Shown: one piece after another, positions 25,630 to 59,040 of the stretch
Position numbering within the stretch: the stretch's first letter is position 1
Layout: every line of letters starts with the position of its first letter
Position numbers and translations under genes: made by a program
DNA from: Peptoanaerobacter stomatis
Lineage (GTDB): Bacteria > Bacillota > Clostridia > Peptostreptococcales > Filifactoraceae
Direction of reading: 5' to 3'
NCBI RefSeq assembly: GCF_000238095.2
Contig: NZ_JH815225.1
Coordinates: 1,369,863 to 1,433,862, forward strand
DNA: 64,000 nt
The notes under the pieces: generated by a model
What the model was told of the DNA's origin: nothing
Seen by the model: only the letters and a program-made list of their open reading frames with translations
The model's database searches: none

Positions 25630-25974
25630 TATTTCTCCTCGATTACATAAATACTATCATCCGATTAAATATAGATTAATATTATGTTTAAATAACTTTT
25701 ATCACAAAACATTTCAAAATATCTTAATTTAATACTAAACACGAACTAAAACTATATTATACCCACTTCCTTAAAGAGTTGTACTTTTTCAAAAACAATA
25801 AGTATATAAAGTTTAGAAATATTATAATTTTATAATAGAGTTTATCCTAAAAATCTGTTTATTAATATTTCTATTATTTTACTAATTCATAACATATTTG
25901 TAATGTTTTTATAAAGCTTTGTTTAAGAAATACATAATATAATTTAAATAGATAATTATTTTGCAAGCTGACAC

Positions 25975-26163
25975 TGGTCTTTACCCCCACACTCGCCTGC
26001 TGGAACTTTTGCTTGGGTTTGCCTCACTAATCATTCTCTCGTAATTTACGGCAGGACTTACACCTAAGATGCACTATGCTCACTATATCATTTTTGTATA
26101 GCTTACGTGGATTCCTTCGCCTGCATCTGGCATGAACTTGCAACCACAGACCTTGCAAAATAT
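25975..26163 (-). repeat. GC-richer non-coding island with inverted ends (possible group II intron remnant)
   Basis: About 190 bases of clearly higher GC within AT-rich DNA, bounded by TTTTGCAAG at the left and CTTGCAAAA at the right. No frame is convincingly coding. Read on the minus strand it contains GGTGTAAGTCCTGCCG, GAGGCAAACCCAAGCAAAAG and GTGTGGGGGTAAAGACCAGT, which resemble domain I strings of bacterial group II introns. No domain V or reverse transcriptase is visible. A MITE or other structured RNA is equally possible. Confidence 0.35.
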
Positions 26164-37306: not shown

Positions 37307-37527
37307 AGAAAAACCTCCGTTCATAGTATTCAGAAAGCATAAAACACCCGCCGTGATTGGCAGGTGCTTCGCTCCTTCTACTATGGTTATGCCGAATTTT
37401 TGAAAAAACAGGCTAATCGGAGGACAACCCCATTTCAAAAAACAGGACAACTTTTCGGAGGATGTAGATTTCTTCACATTTGCATGGTATAATGAAAGAA
37501 ATGAAAAAACAGGACAGGAGGGCAAGT

Positions 37528-38637
37528 ATGAATCAAGAACTGATGACACTGGATTTTTGGCAGAATACGGTCATATATGAGGGCAAAACATTTCCTGTCG
37601 GCACTCTTGCCTGTGATGCGCTGAATGTTCCTGCGAATACCATTGCAAAAATGAATAAGCAATGCGAGAAAATCAATCTGCTGCTTGGTCTGCTGAACGC
37701 AGGGCAGGACGCTTCTGCACTCTTTCCTATGGCAAGGGAAGCTGCTCTGATAATGTTGGATATTCTCAGCAAAACGCCGCCGTTCTCCTACATGAACATA
37801 TCACAGCACCGAGAACGGATAGAAACAGTCTTTACTGCCGACAATGTGCTGAAATATGTGGAGTTTGCTATAAAAGCCGCAACCAACTCCTTGCAGTTTG
37901 AAGAAGTTCCGAAATATGCGGATGCAATGATGCTACAACGCTATACCGCCGTATTCGGGCATCTGGCATACTCCCTTGGGGAATACCAAAAGGCAATGCT
38001 TGATTTTGTGGAAAAATCAGATGGCAACGAAGCAGACCGCACCGCAGAGGGCTTCGCAAAAATGTTCGGAAGCTATTTCCCGCCGGAGTTCTCCATCTCG
38101 GATGGAAATGCCTGGATGTCTACCTTGAACAACTCTGTTCAGTATGTATCTACCATTCGCCCCGGAGAAAATGTAGCAAAGCTGGTCAAGCGAGTACACT
38201 ATGTTTCTTTTGTCGGGATGTTCCGTTCTGATCTCTTTGAGGGACTGTGCGTGGGTCATGCACCGAAGAAATGCCGCATCTGCGGCAAATGGTTTCTGAC
38301 AACCAACGCACGGCACACCAAATACTGTGGTGGCTTTGCATCGGGCGATAAACTGCACCGCACTTGCCGGCAGATCGGCAATCTGAAAGGCAGAGAACAG
38401 CGGGAGCTTGCGGACGATCATCCGGTGAATCAGATACACGAAAAGCGTCTGAACACCATAAACCGCTATGTAAAGCGTGGTACTCTGGACGAAGATCTTA
38501 CAGAAGCTATGAAAAAGCTGGCAAAAGATAAGATGCTCCGGGCATTGAGCAATGTGGCTTATGCCAAGGGCGATTATGAAAAAGAGATGGGACAGGCTGC
38601 CTTACTTGCAGAAACGTCACAATTATTAAATAGATAG
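37528..38637 (+). CDS. DUF6076-like element protein with a treble-clef zinc motif
   Basis: A 369-residue protein. ACAGGAGGGCAAGT precedes the ATG at 37528; the longer frame from 37480 has no site. The N-terminal two thirds are mostly helical without recognisable motifs. Near residue 265 CRICGKWFLTTNARHTKYC has the C-x2-C...H-x3-C pattern of a small zinc knuckle, as in CGNR or DUF6076 proteins. It begins divergently from the primase-like gene. Function unknown; a nucleic-acid-binding role is a guess from the zinc motif. Confidence 0.65.
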   Translation: MNQELMTLDFWQNTVIYEGKTFPVGTLACDALNVPANTIAKMNKQCEKINLLLGLLNAGQDASALFPMAREAALIMLDILSKTPPFSYMNISQHRERIETVFTADNVLKYVEFAIKAATNSLQFEEVPKYADAMMLQRYTAVFGHLAYSLGEYQKAMLDFVEKSDGNEADRTAEGFAKMFGSYFPPEFSISDGNAWMSTLNNSVQYVSTIRPGENVAKLVKRVHYVSFVGMFRSDLFEGLCVGHAPKKCRICGKWFLTTNARHTKYCGGFASGDKLHRTCRQIGNLKGREQRELADDHPVNQIHEKRLNTINRYVKRGTLDEDLTEAMKKLAKDKMLRALSNVAYAKGDYEKEMGQAALLAETSQLLNR

Positions 38638-38663: not shown

Positions 38664-39683
38664 ATGAATGTCGGTATTAACACACAATTAGACGAATCGA
38701 CAATTCGATATTACGATTTATTCTATGATGTTTTGCGTACTCCCAATTTTGATGATCACTTACGATTGCTACGCCCTCAACATGGCATACAAATAATCGG
38801 ATCAAAGAAGAATCAAAGATGCCGGTTTTGCCAAAAGAATGAGCCAGAAGTCCATTTTACAAAAATAGCTCACGTATTCCCAGAATCTATTGGCAACAAT
38901 GCCTTAGCATCAAATTATGAGTGCGACACCTGTAATCAGTTTTTTGGAAATACGACAGAAAATGACTATGCCAATTTCTTTAATCTATATCACAGTATAA
39001 TGCAAATTGATGGGAAAAGTGGCGTTCCAAAGTGTAAATTCAAAGTACCTTGCAAAGCTCGTACTGATGAATGTGCTAAATACTGCGTTGAAATTTCTCT
39101 TGACGGCAATAAACCTCAGATACGCAGATGTAAAGAAGTTGAAAACAAATATATAAGGTTTTCAAATAACTCCATCACGATCTCCAAACCAGTTGGTAAA
39201 TGTTGCCCAATTGCCGTTTTCAAAGCAATTGTTAAAATGGCTATTACAGTTATGCCTGTTGAAGAATTGTCAGGTTTTACCAATACTATAAAATGGATTC
39301 TTGAACCTGAACACCGCAACTTCTATAGCGACAGTAAATTACTTGTCAGATATAAAATGATACCAGGATTTAATGTGACAAAATATCCACATTTTTGTTT
39401 GTTTCGACGCAAGAAAACCGTTTGGAATAAGCCATATATGCTTTTCAATTTGACATATGGATGTTTTTCGTTATTTATAGAAATTCCATCTTTTTCAAAT
39501 AAAAATGCACATGGTGATTTTGAAATAATGCCATTCCCCCCTCTCCCTTTTTATACTAATGCAGAAGGAATATGGGATTTATCTAAAATAGATTCGCCAA
39601 AAGATATGTTACATAGCATAATGTTAAATTTTGATACTTATCAAGATTGTACCGATAGACTGAAACAGAAATCGATACTATAA
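38664..39683 (+). CDS. HNH-type endonuclease-like protein
   Basis: A 339-residue protein. Near residue 50 CRFCQKNEPEVHF is followed by IAHVFPESIGNNALASNYECDTCNQFFG. This is the C-x2-C / H / C-x2-CN pattern of the HNH_5 family. The remaining ~240 residues are unassigned. Its DNA is visibly more AT-rich than the genes on either side, so it may have joined the element separately. AAAAAGGAGGTGCTCGA precedes the ATG. Such proteins occur in restriction and phage-defence islands; that role is inference. Confidence 0.65.
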   Translation: MNVGINTQLDESTIRYYDLFYDVLRTPNFDDHLRLLRPQHGIQIIGSKKNQRCRFCQKNEPEVHFTKIAHVFPESIGNNALASNYECDTCNQFFGNTTENDYANFFNLYHSIMQIDGKSGVPKCKFKVPCKARTDECAKYCVEISLDGNKPQIRRCKEVENKYIRFSNNSITISKPVGKCCPIAVFKAIVKMAITVMPVEELSGFTNTIKWILEPEHRNFYSDSKLLVRYKMIPGFNVTKYPHFCLFRRKKTVWNKPYMLFNLTYGCFSLFIEIPSFSNKNAHGDFEIMPFPPLPFYTNAEGIWDLSKIDSPKDMLHSIMLNFDTYQDCTDRLKQKSIL

Positions 39684-40916: not shown

Positions 40917-40934
40917 AATCCCCATAAAAAAGCA

Positions 40935-40984
40935 AAAACCGCTGCAACTTCCACCCTACATGAGGATGAAATTGCAGCGGTTTA
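40935..40984. terminator. Bidirectional terminator between convergent element genes
   Basis: AAACCGCTGCAA and TTGCAGCGGTTT form a perfect 12-bp stem around a 25-base loop, between the sigma-like gene and the leftward 177-residue gene. Confidence 0.8.
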
Positions 40985-40985
40985 A

Positions 40986-41519
40986 TCATATCACTCGAAA
41001 CGTCAGCATCTGATTCAGATCAGCATTTTCGATAGAGCAAGGCACACCACCACGCAATGTAGCTTCCAGATGATAAAACAGCATACAACGATTTATGTGT
41101 TGCAGCAACAACTGTGATCTTCGCTTATAACCGTATTGCTTGAGCAGGGTTCTCAGCTTAATTCTAACATAATCATTTCCATATCCATACAGAATACGGA
41201 TGCGAATGCTTTTGAAAAACAAATCCAAGTCCGAGAAATCGCTGGTTAATTGTTCTGCTTGCAAAGCTATGTTTGAACGTGCCAAATCTTTTTGAATAGC
41301 AGGAAATTCTTTATCAATGATTGGTTTATCATAGAAGTATTGCGACCAATAATAGGTGTCCAAAATAAATTTTCTTTGATTTGTTCTATATGGAGCATCG
41401 AGAAACACTTTCTCGCCCTCCCATATTCGGTCAAGTATTCTGCTCTCATCTCGACAACCGAGCTGCATACTGCTGACAATTACCACAATATCAAGTGCAG
41501 AGTAGAATAACCCTTGCAT
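40986..41519 (-). CDS. Unknown protein coupled to the helicase-HNH gene
   Basis: A 177-residue soluble protein I cannot assign. It starts MQGLFYSALDIVVIV and has an E/D- and aromatic-rich middle (IWEGEKVFLDAPYRTNQRKFI, TYYWSQYFYDKP), then a basic helical part (RIRILYGYGNDYVRIKLRTLLKQYGYKRRSQ). No signal peptide or membrane helix is clear beyond the mildly hydrophobic N terminus. Its ATG overlaps the helicase stop as TAATG, so the two are translationally coupled and probably work together. It is the last gene of the leftward recombinase-helicase-unknown run and ends at a strong terminator. Confidence 0.65.
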   Translation of the reverse strand: MQGLFYSALDIVVIVSSMQLGCRDESRILDRIWEGEKVFLDAPYRTNQRKFILDTYYWSQYFYDKPIIDKEFPAIQKDLARSNIALQAEQLTSDFSDLDLFFKSIRIRILYGYGNDYVRIKLRTLLKQYGYKRRSQLLLQHINRCMLFYHLEATLRGGVPCSIENADLNQMLTFRVI

Positions 41520-43798
41520 TACTGATCACCTTTGATTCCGTTGCACTGGCGACAGAGAATCTGCAAATTGTCAGCAACGCTCTTTCCGCCGTTGTTCATC
41601 GAAATAATATGATCGACTTGGAAATAGATACGAGATTTATCCGAAATACCACAGCAAGCGCAGCGGTAATTTCCATCAGCATCTTTAGCCTTTTCAAAAG
41701 CCTGATCCCTCAAGCTCTTTTCCAATTCAGGATTGATTTTTCCGATTTCGTACAAAGGTAATTCTTCCAATGTTCTGGTTCCGTACTTGATGTTATTTTC
41801 ATCATCGTAAATATCCGGATGTGACAGCTTCATCAATTCGATATTCAGCTGACGGAGGAAATACAGTTTTCTTCCAAAGAACAGGCGAAGCATATTATCA
41901 TCACTGGATTCCCAGAGAGAATCAATATACTCTGTTCTTTTTCGTTCACCCATATCTTCGTCCCAAATATGCTGAGCAATCTTGCTTACGTCAAGCTTGC
42001 TTCTATCGACTTCAGCAAATGTGTAGAACTGAGGAACAGCTTCATACTGGGCATAATATTTCAGCATATTCAGAACATCCTTTCTTTCGTATGGAGGAAT
42101 CATTTCTCCACAGAAGAAGGAATCTCTGCACTGTGCTTCCATTTCATCAAGCTGTGCTTCTGTCAAATATTCTTCGGTTGTCCCAAAAGACTTAAACAGC
42201 GAAGGAAGCGCATCCATCAAATTTTTATAGGAATCCTGGGTGCTGTCATAGACCATAACCTGATAAGCGTGATCCATGCCATTCTCTTCGAGATATGTAA
42301 ACGCATACATACCAACAGGGATTCTCTGCTCAAAAGGCACTTTTTCCAATACAGTAGTATCAACTGCATCATCCAAAATAGCAGCGAACTCCTCGATTTT
42401 TGAAATAGCAATCATACGCAGATCACGTTTTGCACGATCAGCATCATTGTCCTGGAAGTCATTGTTTCCATCAAACAAGCTTTCAGGATTTACCCATGCA
42501 ATGTGCTCGTTCCAGTGATCTACAAAGGAAACAATATATGCACTGGATGTACCACCGGCCGCTGTACCACGCAATGCACGACCAACCATCTGGGTCATCA
42601 AAATAGAGGAAACCGTGGGTCTTGCCAAAAACACTGTCTTAGTTTTCGGCAAATCCACGCCTTCTGTCAAGATATTTACGTTGATTAAAACCTGTAACTT
42701 TCCGTTTCGATAATCGTCAAGCTTTCTTTCGTTATCCTCTCGGCTGATTGTCACACCGGTAATCGCATCTTTCACAGAAGATACAACGAAGTCAGCTTTG
42801 ATACCGGTTTTTTTGAAAAGGGAGGTCAGTTGGATTGCGTGAACCACATTAACAGCAAATAGAATCGTTTGACCGTATTCATCCTTCTTTGACTTATAGG
42901 TTTCGACAATCAGCTTGTTACGAGCTGCACTGTCAGCCATCTGCTGTGCAACTTCGTCCGGCAACACGTCCAAATGCTGAATGCTTTCCCAAGCATCCAC
43001 GCCAAGAGAATCGCCGTATTCTTCATCTGTATAAAAACTTTCAAAAATGGGTTTTGCAAGAATCTGTCTGTTAATCAGTTCTTTCAAACCGATCTGGTAT
43101 GTAATACCGACATCACCGTGAACAACCTGTCCATCGCTGATTCCATCGGTATAGATTTTTGCTAAAAGCCCCTGTTCTTCCTCAGCGGTACGGAACGGAG
43201 TAGCAGTCAAACCAATCAGCTTCAAGTTAGGAACTTTGGCTCTTACATAATCAATGACTTTTCTATATGTCTTCGCCGTTGAGTGATGGGCTTCGTCTAC
43301 AATCAGATACAACTCTTTTTCATCCTTGAGCCACTGATCCAATCGCTCAATATTTCTTCCGATACTATCTTTGCTGACAATCAACAAATTATCACTTGAA
43401 CGAATATCGCTGATTCGATCATGGCTGGATGCACCAGATATAATTCTAAAACAAAAAGAAGAAATGTGAGGAACAACTTCTGTATAGGCAAACTTTTGGA
43501 ATGATTCGGCAGCCTGATCCAGTAACATCTGACGGTGGGCAATCCAAAGGATTTTCTTTTTCTTATCAATAGCATTTTTTAAAAGCCACATAGAAGCAGT
43601 ATAAGTTTTACCACCACCAGTAGGAAGAACTACCAGTGTACTGTAAGATGCTTCCTGATTCATCTTATCCAGCGCTTCCATTGCCTTTTTCTGATGCTCG
43701 TAAGGTGTTCTGGTGTTTGTTCCCTTTTTAGGAAAAATATCACCAAATGATTTTACTTCTACATGGTTTATAAAGTTTTGTTCGTCTGTTATTTTCAT
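41519..43798 (-). CDS. Superfamily 2 helicase fused to a C-terminal HNH nuclease
   Basis: A 759-residue protein. The N-terminal SF2 helicase core has motif I LPTGGGKTYTA (59-65), Ia AHRQMLLDQ, II VDEAHH (168-172), III LTATPFR (198-203), V ILTEGVDLP and VI QMVGRALRG. A ~270-residue linker follows. The last ~50 residues form an HNH domain: CACC, DHIISMNNGGK, NLQILCRQCNGIKGD, with all expected cysteine, histidine and asparagine positions. Such fusions occur in restriction-like and phage-defence loci. The start is weakly supported by AAAGG 15 bases before the ATG. It begins 19 bases after the recombinase stop and overlaps the next gene by one base. Confidence 0.85.
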   Translation of the reverse strand: MKITDEQNFINHVEVKSFGDIFPKKGTNTRTPYEHQKKAMEALDKMNQEASYSTLVVLPTGGGKTYTASMWLLKNAIDKKKKILWIAHRQMLLDQAAESFQKFAYTEVVPHISSFCFRIISGASSHDRISDIRSSDNLLIVSKDSIGRNIERLDQWLKDEKELYLIVDEAHHSTAKTYRKVIDYVRAKVPNLKLIGLTATPFRTAEEEQGLLAKIYTDGISDGQVVHGDVGITYQIGLKELINRQILAKPIFESFYTDEEYGDSLGVDAWESIQHLDVLPDEVAQQMADSAARNKLIVETYKSKKDEYGQTILFAVNVVHAIQLTSLFKKTGIKADFVVSSVKDAITGVTISREDNERKLDDYRNGKLQVLINVNILTEGVDLPKTKTVFLARPTVSSILMTQMVGRALRGTAAGGTSSAYIVSFVDHWNEHIAWVNPESLFDGNNDFQDNDADRAKRDLRMIAISKIEEFAAILDDAVDTTVLEKVPFEQRIPVGMYAFTYLEENGMDHAYQVMVYDSTQDSYKNLMDALPSLFKSFGTTEEYLTEAQLDEMEAQCRDSFFCGEMIPPYERKDVLNMLKYYAQYEAVPQFYTFAEVDRSKLDVSKIAQHIWDEDMGERKRTEYIDSLWESSDDNMLRLFFGRKLYFLRQLNIELMKLSHPDIYDDENNIKYGTRTLEELPLYEIGKINPELEKSLRDQAFEKAKDADGNYRCACCGISDKSRIYFQVDHIISMNNGGKSVADNLQILCRQCNGIKGDQ

Positions 43799-43817
43799 CA
43801 GTTTATCCCGTACCTTT

Positions 43818-45774
43818 CTATATCATCCCAAAATATTTAAATGCTTCTCGGATTGCTTTCTCTTTTTCTGGCGGACACTGGGGCTGTCTGGAATCCTCGG
43901 ATTTTGGCAGGTTATAGTTTTTTCCTACCTCAATCCCGCATTTTCGTTTAATCTGAGAGATATACAGGTTGAAAACCTTCAACCCGGTATGCTCTAACAC
44001 ATACTCCTTGATCTGCGGATAGGTTGCCCCGTCTTGAAACTCCGACATATCCATATCTTCCAAAGAGAACTCAACCCGAATCTTTTTCGAGTCGACCTCG
44101 CCCTTGGAAAGCAACGCGACTGTCTCGACTTGCTCATCATTGTCCAAACTTGTATTTAGATCCTCATCAATGATAGGTAGCTTAAAAGTAATGGATTTTA
44201 GCCATTGTCCATTAGGCTGCTTCTCTTCATAAATTTGAATTTCAGAAATGAGTGCTTCTATTAGCTGCCTGCGTTCGACATCGTTCATGACTTTATAAAG
44301 TTTGTAAAAATAAATCAAAACCTTATATATATTATCGCCAGTCAGTTTCTCAGCTTCTATTGTTTCTTTCTTTGCTTTAGCTTCTATTAACTGACCTTCT
44401 AATTCCTCAATTTTATAATACATACGATAAAGTCTATCATCTAAATCATTCTTTCTTCTCTTATAGTGTTTATCCTCAACATCTAAATTATCTATTTCCT
44501 CAATGAGCTTAAATTTTGTGGAATGACTTTTCCTTAGCTTTTTTTGATAATTATCTATCTCATTTTCAATCGCTGATGTATCAACTTTCATGTTGATTTT
44601 TTCCTGCATCATAGACGCAAATTTAGGATTGCTAACTAACTTAATTATTACCTCAGCAACAGCATCATCTAACGATTCTTCTCTAATTTGTTTGTTGTAG
44701 GTGCATTTATGTCCTCTATTCATAAGTCTATGCTTACAACCATAGTAATAGAAGTCTTTATGCTTCGTCCCATCTTTTTTATATTTTATATATTTGTTTC
44801 CAAACATTCCAGCACCACATATCGGACACTTTACTATTCCTGATAATAAGTGTGTCCTCATGTTCTTGCCCTTATTTACATGTTCATACTTTTTAGCTTG
44901 TGCTTTCAGTTTAACTTGTGCAGCCTGCCACAATTCATCTGGGATTATTGCTTCATGAATGCCTTCTGCTACTATATAATCGTCCTGCTCTACTTGTCTG
45001 TATTCATTCCTTGTACCATGAACTTTTTCTAAAGTTCTTCTTCCAAATGCTATTTTTCCATTATATACAGGATTCTTTAATATCTTTCTTATAAGACCTG
45101 CGTCAAACAATGGATTTTTTCCATTTTGTCTTGGTATTTTTCTTATACCATGGTTTTCTAAATACTTAGAAAGACCATTAGCTACAATACTTGTGTTTAC
45201 ATACTGATCAAATATAGTTCTTATTGCAATTGCTTCTTCTTCATTTATTAACAACTTTCCATCAATCAGTTGATAGCCATACGGAGCAAATCCACCATTC
45301 CATTTACCCTCTCTTGCCTTTTGAATACGACCTTCCATTGTTTTGGATACGAATGTTTTCTCTTTCTATTTCAGCCACTGCTGATAAAACAGAAATCATC
45401 AATTTACCTGCATCTTTAGATGAATCAATTCCATCTTCAACACAAATAAGATTTACACCAAAATCTTGCATTATTTGCAGAGTCGAAAGTACATCAGCAG
45501 CATTTCTTGCAAATCTCGATAATTTAAATACAAGAACGAAAGATACCCCATCCTTTCCAGATTTTATATCTTCCATCATACGAGTAAACTGGACTCTACC
45601 TTCTATAGATTTTCCGGATTTACCTGCATCTTCATATTCACCAACAATCTCATAATCGTTATAGAGAGCAAAAGCCTTCATTCTTGATTTTTGTGCCTCT
45701 AAAGAATAACCGTCTATCTGTATTGATGTAGATACTCTTGTATAGAGGTATACTTTTATTTTTTCTTTTGACAT
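43818..45774 (-). pseudogene. Large serine recombinase, frameshifted
   Basis: Together the two frames form a ~650-residue large serine recombinase that would integrate and excise the element. The N-terminal resolvase domain has YTRVSTSIQIDGYSLEAQ with the catalytic serine in RVSTS, KLSRFARN and AEIERENI. After IRIQ the frame ends at 45304. The continuation MEGRIQKAREGKWNGG opens from 45338. Removing one A from the run at about 45341-45344 would give IRIQTMEGR, the usual sequence. The second part has the zinc ribbon CPICGAG...C, a coiled coil (about 255-330 of that part) and a C-terminal QIKEYVLEHTGLKV tail. Base composition rises near 44.2 kb toward this tail. Probably inactive unless the shift is a sequencing error. 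Confidence 0.85.
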
Positions 45775-46040: not shown

Positions 46041-46549
46041 CGCTTTAAATTTTCCTTAATTAACTATTATTTTTCTTACTAAGTTTTATGACATTGGTAG
46101 GTGCATTGGCTGCTACATAGGAATCTCACCTCCGCTCCTTATTCCAGACGAAGCGACTTAAACTATTGAAGTATCATTATCACTACTTGTATCACCGAAC
46201 AGATTGCCATTTCTGTTTTTTTTGTATTCTTATTTATCGCTCACTTTCTTGTATCCTTGGCTAACCCAGTATTCATAGAACCGAAATTGCTTTCAGCAGA
46301 AAGGTCATGGCGTAAGTCATAATTCTCCACAAGTAGATAAAGTCCTACCTTGGTCTATTCCGTTGTCAAAGAGCAATATTTGAAAGGGATTATTTTCTTT
46401 ACATTTTCCTATTTGCCATAAGCAGGCTATCTCTTATTCAAGAAAGTAAAGGAGGTCAAACTCCCCTTCATTTAAGAGATTTAGTTGCAATGGGCTGTTG
46501 CATAATGATGAAAATCATAGTAACAGTCTCTATTTTTATACAAAATTTT
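46041..46549 (-). other. Gene-poor right end of the element
   Basis: About 500 bases with no long ORF. On the minus strand GGAGCGGAGGTGAGATTCCT, a strong ribosome site, precedes ATG-TAG, which looks like another broken small ORF (AANAPTNVIKLSKKN follows in a shifted frame). Upstream, NGNLFGDTSSDNDTSIV can be read as a possible peptide end. The 46250-46490 part is GC-richer and probably leader sequence of the element. The junction with host DNA lies near 46.5 kb but is not defined. Confidence 0.4.
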
Positions 46550-58421: not shown

Positions 58422-58920
58422 TAATATTTTTAGAATATAAAAAATTTTAAATGCACAATCTTATAATTATTATACCTGTTTAAAATGTAGATACATCTTA
58501 CATTTGGACAGGTATTTTTTAATATATCAATATTTATATTTTATAACAATCTCAATTTAACTAATAGATACATATATATAATTTATTTTAAATATGCTTA
58601 ATTTTACTTAGCTAATAAGTTTTTAAAAACAGAAATGTCTATTACTCTATTGATTTTTAGTATTATGTGCTGTTTCATTTTGATAAAAAATTAAATACCA
58701 TATACCAAACTTTTTATATGCGATGATTTTTGCTTTCATTAAATTACTATTGTTTATAAAAATATAGCTTTTTAATAGTTTTTTAGTATAAATATAGGAT
58801 ATATTTTAGAGCCAAAATATTACTTTTGTTGTATTTTGTAAATAATTTAAATAAATTCAAAAAAGTACTTGATATTATTTATTAATTGTGATATATTTAA
58901 CTCACAACTAAATAATCCAT
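58422..58920. other. Intergenic region with AT-rich repeat copy 2
   Basis: 500 AT-rich bases. TACCTGTTTAAAATGTAG and CTACATTTTGGACAGGTA-like strings at about 58472-58516 form a terminator hairpin for the cupin gene. The dispersed core TTTATTTTAAATATGCTTAA TTTTACTTAGCTAA lies at about 58580-58616. No ORF seen. Confidence 0.45.
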
Positions 58921-59029
58921 ATTCTTCAGGGAAGGTGAAATTCCTTACCGGCGGTAAAGTCCGCGAACCCTTTTGGGCCGAACTTGTGAAATTCAAGTAC
59001 CGACAGTACAGTCTGGATGAAAGAAGAAA
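58921..59029 (+). promoter_or_regulatory. ribU leader: FMN riboswitch (RFN element)
   Basis: The six-helix FMN aptamer is clear: TTCAGGGAAGGTGAAATTCC, CCGGCGGTAAAGTCCGCGA and CCGACAGTACAGTCTGGATG, closed by ATTCTTC/GAAGAAAT. A terminator follows at 59041. It controls the riboflavin transporter gene 75 bases downstream; FMN binding should end transcription. Confidence 0.97.
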
Positions 59030-59040
59030 TATTTTTCATT

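What the first reader, a model, noticed from the sequence alone, without database searches (positions are those of the whole stretch)
40986..43798. Helicase-HNH fusion with a coupled unknown partner: candidate defence module
The SF2 helicase keeps motifs I, II, III, V and VI plus a complete C-terminal HNH nuclease. Its stop overlaps the next start (TAATG), and that 177-residue protein has no recognisable family. Both frames are open while the recombinase beside them and two other element genes are broken, which hints at retained function. Helicase-plus-nuclease pairs such as Hachiman and restriction-like systems defend against phage, but the domain layout here does not match one I can name.
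Basis: partly seen in the sequence, partly recalled or inferred. Interest (0 to 1): 0.65.

Follow-up and report, generated by a model that had tools for sequence, protein, structure and literature searches.

The report
Two-gene helicase-nuclease cassette, probable defence
A DNA motor fused to a DNA-cutting enzyme travels between bacteria as a compact two-gene cassette with a small helper protein that resembles parts of the motor itself; it is probably an unrecorded restriction-like defence against foreign DNA, but this has not been tested.

Summary
In detail: the minus-strand pair 43798-40986 is a 759-aa SF2 helicase with a complete zinc HNH nuclease, its stop overlapping (TAATG) the start of a 177-aa protein that no Pfam, NCBIfam, PADLOC or PDB sequence matches. 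In 80 relatives (best of at least 446) the small gene follows directly in 42, overlapping by 1 or 4 nt in 35; in another sample 11 of 11 genomes with the HNH-type helicase have it (seed included). It marks one helicase clade (41 of 43 rows). DNA similarity stops at the pair: a 2.9-kb cassette. Both genes are under purifying selection. The partner is composite: its acidic helical half (A) resembles the helicase's own segment before the HNH; its basic, winged-helix-like half (B) is fused in front of the helicase in 12 of the 80. Best reading: a restriction-like ATP-dependent DNA-cutting complex in which the partner docks by A and reads DNA by B. By the tests run it is not Hachiman, SauUSI, R-M or RadD. 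Defence is inferred, with no assay: some copies lie beside R-M genes (not significant), and a distant phage helicase family is related. New variant of a known kind.

The parts
41519..43798 (-). SF2 helicase with C-terminal HNH nuclease, 759 aa
42509..43711 (-). helicase core (residues about 30-430): ResIII/DEAD and Helicase_C
   Evidence: PDB relatives SauUSI and RadD
41804..42004 (-). helicase segment (residues about 599-665) that resembles the first half of the partner ('A-like')
   Evidence: similar order of helices in the two models by eye
41522..41662 (-). zinc HNH nuclease domain (residues 713-759)
40986..41519 (-). 177-aa partner protein, overlapping start (TAATG)
41265..41519 (-). partner domain A (residues 1-85), helical, acidic on average in the family
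40989..41168 (-). partner domain B (residues 118-177), basic, winged-helix-like; fused in front of the helicase in relatives
40936..40983 (-). strong hairpin then T-rich run just after the partner stop: probable intrinsic terminator
   Evidence: (-29.9 kcal/mol, z -6.3) and sequence; the simple terminator scan does not list it
43818..45774 (-). broken CcrB-like serine recombinase directly upstream (two frames); context, not part of the cassette

Best explanation
The two genes encode one ATP-driven, DNA-cutting complex of restriction type. The helicase-HNH is motor and nuclease. The partner docks on it, probably by its helical domain A lying next to the related segment of the helicase just before the HNH, and presents a basic winged-helix-like domain B that recognises DNA (a modified base, an end or a junction rather than a variable sequence). 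Engagement of B switches on translocation and HNH cutting of foreign DNA. Shown: motifs, coupling, conservation, resemblance of both partner halves to helicase parts, B fused to the helicase in relatives, cassette mobility. Inferred: complex formation, DNA recognition by B, activation, cutting, and defence as the purpose.
For: Helicase and HNH motifs conserved. Partner directly downstream in 42 of 80 relatives, by my choice of start codon overlapping by 1 or 4 nt in 35 of 42; 41 of 43 rows of a clade with support 100/99; 11 of 11 in another sample. Fusion: a partner-only profile run on 398 genomes hit, besides the window, only two places, both inside helicases of this family, one by B at the N-terminus and one by A before the HNH. 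B against the N-terminal extension of fused helicases: hhalign E 1.9e-11 (3 rows) and 7.7e-5 (9 rows); with the whole partner, like for like with the shuffles, 2.6e-10 against a best of 0.038 and 0.0013 against a best of 0.0086 in 50 column shuffles each. A against the helicase segment, whole partner against residues 430-700: 4.4e-6 in relatives without partner gene (best of 100 shuffles 0.01) and 8.4e-4 in the window's clade (best 0.023); narrower comparisons reach 7.9e-7 and 4.5e-5. B is basic (mean charge +5.4) and better conserved than A (44% against 29%). One distant relative, L111, has an ASCH domain in the N-terminal slot, a superfamily of which some members are predicted to bind modified bases (PMC7641849, passages). 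Within 33-50 kb, similarity to the other loci is confined to the pair. R-M genes beside several copies.
Against: No assay of any member. The R-M neighbourhood signal is not significant by locus, and other PADLOC models (11 families) also match in the control. The Pfam families listed for the flanks are mostly ordinary (first 25 of 134 and of 163). The profile comparison for the nine Bacteroidota extensions is modest (HHsearch probability 19-62%), and that for A 24-92%. Fold matches of B are weak (Z at most 3.8; no Foldseek hit at E below 0.001). L111 and L102 have no HNH match in Pfam, so front domain and HNH do not always go together. 15 of 68 tree rows have neither partner nor fused B. Full-length partner relatives stand alone in conserved synteny in 5 of 12 genomes of one family, so A+B can exist without this helicase. 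Phages are not free of relatives: the phage helicase family phrog_16 matches residues 23-640 at E 2.8e-71, although tblastn of residues 425-700 found nothing in phage records. Confidence was lowered from 0.55 to 0.5 on re-reading.
Confidence: 0.5

Rival explanations
1. DNA-integrity sensor in the manner of Hachiman or Druantia III: the helicase patrols DNA, the partner holds the HNH in check or senses aberrant DNA, and activation destroys phage and host DNA together.
For: Helicase plus small coupled protein, nuclease in the complex; B is conserved rather than variable, as for a reader of DNA structure. Hachiman works this way (abstract of PMC12278908).
Against: Partner is not HamA (no PADLOC match); here the nuclease is on the helicase. 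In two relatives (L062, L070) the partner frame is broken while the helicase is open, odd for a needed brake, unless these are assembly errors.
Confidence: 0.2
2. DNA repair, recombination or replication helicase (RadD-like or of phage origin) carried by mobile elements, not defence.
For: Best NCBIfam model and best PDB fold match are RadD; the phage DNA-helicase family phrog_16 matches residues 23-640 at E 2.8e-71.
Against: 97.7 bits against a cut-off of 720 for RadD; the pair is patchy (1 of 391 genomes of the window's class) and moves as a cassette; RadD has no HNH or partner (recalled).
Confidence: 0.15
3. Element-maintenance or inter-element competition module (toxin-antitoxin-like or plasmid exclusion) of integrative elements.
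For: In the window it lies behind a serine recombinase in a higher-GC block; resolvases, relaxases and integrases occur in flanks.
Against: In the stretches held, 2 of 80 relatives have a recombinase similar to the window's, at 24-32% identity (many flanks are short); partner can be broken with the helicase open and the reverse.
Confidence: 0.1

Closest known systems
SauUSI (ATP-dependent type IV restriction enzyme, PDB 7clg)
   Same: Closest solved relative of the helicase core by sequence (E 1.4e-21) and best PADLOC class (mREase_IV); SF2 motor plus nuclease, no methyltransferase in the cassette.
   Different: SauUSI has an N-terminal PLD nuclease, an alpha-helical coupler and a C-terminal SRA reader in one chain (PMC7913695, passages); here the nuclease is a C-terminal HNH and the presumed reader is a separate protein with a different fold.
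Hachiman HamAB
   Same: Helicase and nuclease acting as one two-gene complex (abstract).
   Different: HamA is the nuclease; here the partner has no HamA match and the HNH is on the helicase.
CglI / NgoAVII
   Same: DEAD-family ATPase and a second protein act as one ATP-dependent DNA-cutting enzyme (abstract of PMC4267653).
   Different: Three genes with a methyltransferase; the endonuclease is the R-protein, not the ATPase.
RadD
   Same: Best fold match of the helicase.
   Different: Far below the RadD model cut-off; no HNH or partner (recalled).
phrog_16 (phage DNA helicases)
   Same: Strongest family match of the helicase in any library used, residues 23-640, E 2.8e-71.
   Different: Match does not include the HNH; no phage record matched residues 425-700 by tblastn.

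Membership tests
SauUSI-type IV restriction enzyme | SF2 helicase-like ATPase | tested here: met
SauUSI-type IV restriction enzyme | N-terminal PLD nuclease domain | tested here: not met
   no PLD match at E up to 1; chain starts about 30 residues before the helicase core
SauUSI-type IV restriction enzyme | C-terminal SRA target-recognition domain | tested here: not met
   C-terminus is HNH; no SRA match in either protein at E up to 1
SauUSI-type IV restriction enzyme | cuts only modified DNA | not testable with these tools
   needs biochemistry
Hachiman | HamA (DUF1837) partner | tested here: not met
   partner has no PADLOC or Pfam match at E up to 1
Hachiman | HamB helicase | tested here: inconclusive
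   no HamB among the 25 of 32 PADLOC families shown
Type I / III restriction-modification | methyltransferase and specificity subunits in the operon | tested here: not met
   conserved unit is the 2.9-kb pair only; no methyltransferase model matched the other five window ORFs given to PADLOC, and none of those shown for the helicase lies outside its motor region; the rest of the window was not annotated
RadD | NCBIfam RadD equivalog score | tested here: not met
   97.7 bits, cut-off 720
Septu | PtuA ATPase with PtuB HNH (definition recalled) | tested here: not met
   only an HNH-level PtuB match, E 0.0019, on the helicase; the partner matches no PADLOC model
Anti-phage defence system (any) | protects cells from phage | not testable with these tools
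   plating assay needed

The most novel reading that the evidence does not exclude
An unnamed, horizontally spread restriction-like immune family in which the target-sensing subunit was built out of the effector's own modules: a copy of the helicase's pre-HNH segment became a docking domain for the winged-helix reader that other members carry fused at the N-terminus. The N-terminal/partner slot is an exchangeable sensor (winged helix; ASCH or TPR in distant relatives) on a shared helicase that usually ends in an HNH. (Probability lowered from 0.35 because the ASCH relative has no HNH match.)
Probability: 0.3. Interest if true: 0.72.

Novelty: new variant of a known kind. Interest (0 to 1): 0.55.

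Why it matters
If it is defence, it adds a two-gene helicase-nuclease family, found in about 6% of sampled genomes of the class of Selenomonas (11 of 180) and scattered through gut Clostridia, that the 2023 PADLOC models do not name. It is also a clear natural case of fusion, splitting and domain reuse that suggests which protein touches which, and a small, testable 2.9-kb system for how a motor-nuclease is licensed by a separable reader.

Tried and rejected
Rejected: partner as an unrelated orphan (searches show both halves in the helicase family). Rejected: chance overlap of ORFs (dN/dS; 42 of 80 relatives). Not found: a fixed third gene; no Pfam family listed recurs in more than 3 of 148 or 4 of 129 flank ORFs, though recurrence of unnamed proteins was not tested. 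Rejected: Hachiman, SauUSI, R-M, RadD, Septu as membership (see table).

Led nowhere or spoke against: plain BLASTP of the partner against the fused G690 helicase (nothing significant; only profiles show it); partner in viral contigs, plasmids and phages; helicase in viral contigs (one match to the HNH only); helicase C-terminal part in phages (three records, HNH only) and on plasmids (one Deinococcus, 25%). The distant helicase of G679 was not hit by the partner profile. Fold search of the partner gave only weak, mixed matches, winged-helix proteins among the top rows. Promoter scan is at chance level (18 found, 17.3 expected) and the terminator scan (3 found, 2.7 expected) does not list the hairpin after the partner. 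A Bacteroidota sample added no copy beyond its seed at E 1e-50 (1 of 198). The three distant helicases and the two showed no partner, but only some 270-760 bases downstream of them were held.

Literature: no title or abstract in the listings describes this pair, and (five phrases such as 'helicase HNH') gave 0 papers; one search listed 15 of 27. Subscription journals are mostly not held. Papers seen: PMC7641849, PMC12839542 and PMC7913695 as passages; PMC4267653 and PMC12278908 as abstract and section list; all others only as search listings.

Rows dropped: the tree uses the window and 67 of 80 loci; 13 were left out because the helicase match began after residue 60 or ended before 640. Two rows of the tree (L041, L042) are identical. 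Flank scan used 277 of 280 ORFs of at least 110 aa; two of the three dropped are pieces of broken helicases, the third (L073:1943-3334) was left out by oversight. The control scan used 125 of 184 ORFs from 18 regions of 7 genomes chosen by hand at round positions; 58 were cut by the size limit and one very long ORF by me. L115's short match to the partner profile lies away from the partner's place and was not counted. Most source genomes are metagenome bins, so single odd taxa may be binning errors.

Full report
What is there. On the minus strand, 43798-41519 encodes a 759-aa SF2 helicase ending in a zinc HNH nuclease, and 41519-40986 a 177-aa protein; stop and start share one base, TAATG. A strong hairpin with a T-rich tail follows the partner stop (-29.9 kcal/mol, z -6.3), probably the end of the unit, although the simple terminator scan does not list it. 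Just upstream lies a CcrB-like serine recombinase broken into two frames. The 1-kb bins from 36 to 44 kb have 37-48% G+C, against 22-38% in the other bins.

Is it more than chance. The genome has one copy. The partner sits directly downstream in 42 of these 80; with the start codons I chose, the overlap is 1 nt in 22 and 4 nt in 13 of the 42. In L062 and L070 the partner is split into two frames, in L072 and L073 the helicase. Against the closest copies, L038 and L066, dN/dS is 0.03-0.04 for the helicase and 0.07-0.09 for the partner, with dS near 1 and so roughly measured. DNA similarity to L038 runs from 40934 to 43829 and stops; within window 33-50 kb no alignment of 150 bases or more to any of the loci lies outside the pair. 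Distances of helicase and partner correlate over 27 rows (r 0.81, reached by 0 of 2000 permutations): they travel together.

Who has it. On a maximum-likelihood tree of 68 rows the partner-bearing helicases are 41 of the 43 rows of one branch with support 100/99; the exceptions are L064 and L075. The branch mixes Lachnospiraceae, Oscillospiraceae, Selenomonadaceae, one Bacteroidota and one Methanosphaera row (many are metagenome bins), so it has probably moved between lineages. In a sample of 180 genomes of the class of the Selenomonas genome G784, 14 had a match; the 11 of HNH type all have the partner next door (seed included; one is a partial helicase, two carry an in-frame TAA), and the 3 distant ones show none in the 270-760 bases held behind them. 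In the window's own class 3 of 391 genomes had a match and only the window's has the pair.

What the partner is. It is not an orphan. A profile of 39 partner sequences, run on 398 whole genomes, hit the window and two other places only; both lie in helicases of this family: positions 103-174 at the N-terminus of the G690 helicase (E 1.2e-5), positions 6-116 before the HNH of the G544 helicase (E 7.5e-5). In the 80 loci a first-round partner profile already hits the front of L087, L102 and L101 and the pre-HNH segment of L082, L090 and L078. Profile comparisons agree: residues 112-177 (B) align end to end with the N-terminal extension of L087/L101/L102 (E 1.9e-11) and of nine Bacteroidota helicases (7.7e-5); an unrelated extension (L107/L109/L110) gives 0.11. 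Like for like with the whole partner the values are 2.6e-10 and 0.0013, against best shuffles of 0.038 and 0.0086, so the Bacteroidota group alone is a modest case. Residues 8-80 (A) align with helicase residues about 590-665: 4.4e-6 in relatives without a partner gene (best of 100 shuffles 0.01), 8.4e-4 in the window's clade (best 0.023). AlphaFold2 gives the partner mean pLDDT 87 (pTM 0.77): helices to residue 111, then strand-helix-helix-strand-strand; the helicase segment shows a similar order of helices by eye (mean pLDDT 77). PDB matches are weak and mixed, with winged-helix proteins such as RepE and TFIIIC among the top rows (Z at most 3.8). B is basic (mean +5.4) and 44% identical on average; A is acidic (-4.9) and 29%.

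Front slot. Of the 38 loci without a downstream partner, 12 carry B fused in front (3 individually significant, 9 as a group). L111, a distant relative, has an ASCH domain in front (E 1.2e-6) but no HNH match; L102 has no HNH match either; L113 has TPRs in front and a DEDDh exonuclease behind its HNH, L097 TPRs behind. A shared helicase with a varying front suggests interchangeable sensors; this is inference.

Mechanism. Most likely the two proteins form one ATP-dependent DNA-cutting complex: docking by A, DNA reading by B, translocation by the helicase, cutting by the HNH. B is conserved and basic rather than hypervariable, so it probably reads a common feature (modification, end, junction). 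No methyltransferase belongs to the cassette, so discrimination would have to come from such a feature. I saw no binding, ATPase, cutting or phage experiment on any member; those steps are inferred.

Defence or not. For: the best PADLOC class is type IV restriction; the closest solved relative by sequence is SauUSI; R-M genes lie next to copies in at least 4 of 39 loci with flanking ORFs (L049, L104, L088, L070), a DpdF/Cas3-like helicase at L057, PDC-M57 at L085, while 125 control ORFs from 18 regions have no R-M match. Against: the locus count is not significant, 11 other PADLOC families match in the control and a SoFic match occurs in both sets, the flank families listed are mostly ordinary, and the phage helicase family phrog_16 matches residues 23-640 at E 2.8e-71, so phages do hold distant relatives; in 50,697 phage records, however, tblastn found only HNH matches for the C-terminal part and none for residues 425-700.

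Left over. Full-length partner relatives occur as a single gene in conserved synteny in 5 of 12 genomes of one family; on the one contig read whole there is no such helicase. A+B has a life of its own, and which came first is open.

Membership and novelty. Defining features of SauUSI (PLD, SRA), Hachiman (HamA), R-M (methyltransferase), RadD (score) and Septu were tested and not met; it looks like an ATP-dependent restriction enzyme in its parts but is a member of none of these. No listing of six paper searches describes the pair. I file it as a new variant of a known kind.

Noticed in passing
   Followed up: partly
L141, L145: Helicase-HNH with one in-frame TAA while the partner is intact; conversely L062 and L070 have a broken partner with an open helicase.
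   Followed up: no
L113:2415-6170: Fusion of TPRs, helicase, HNH and a C-terminal DEDDh exonuclease in one 1251-aa protein of the same helicase family.
   Followed up: no
window 38664-39683 (+): 339-aa protein with an HNH_5 domain, on the opposite strand beyond the convergent 391-aa gene.
   Followed up: no
window 37480-38637 (+): DUF6076 protein with a weak HamA-like match (E 0.0029).
   Followed up: no
window 46115-46180 (-): pemK RNA motif (RF02913, 41.9 bits) upstream of the broken recombinase.
   Followed up: no
window 25959-26160 (-): raiA RNA (RF03072, 167.9 bits).
   Followed up: no
window 58918-59032 (+): FMN riboswitch (RF00050, 105.8 bits).
   Followed up: no
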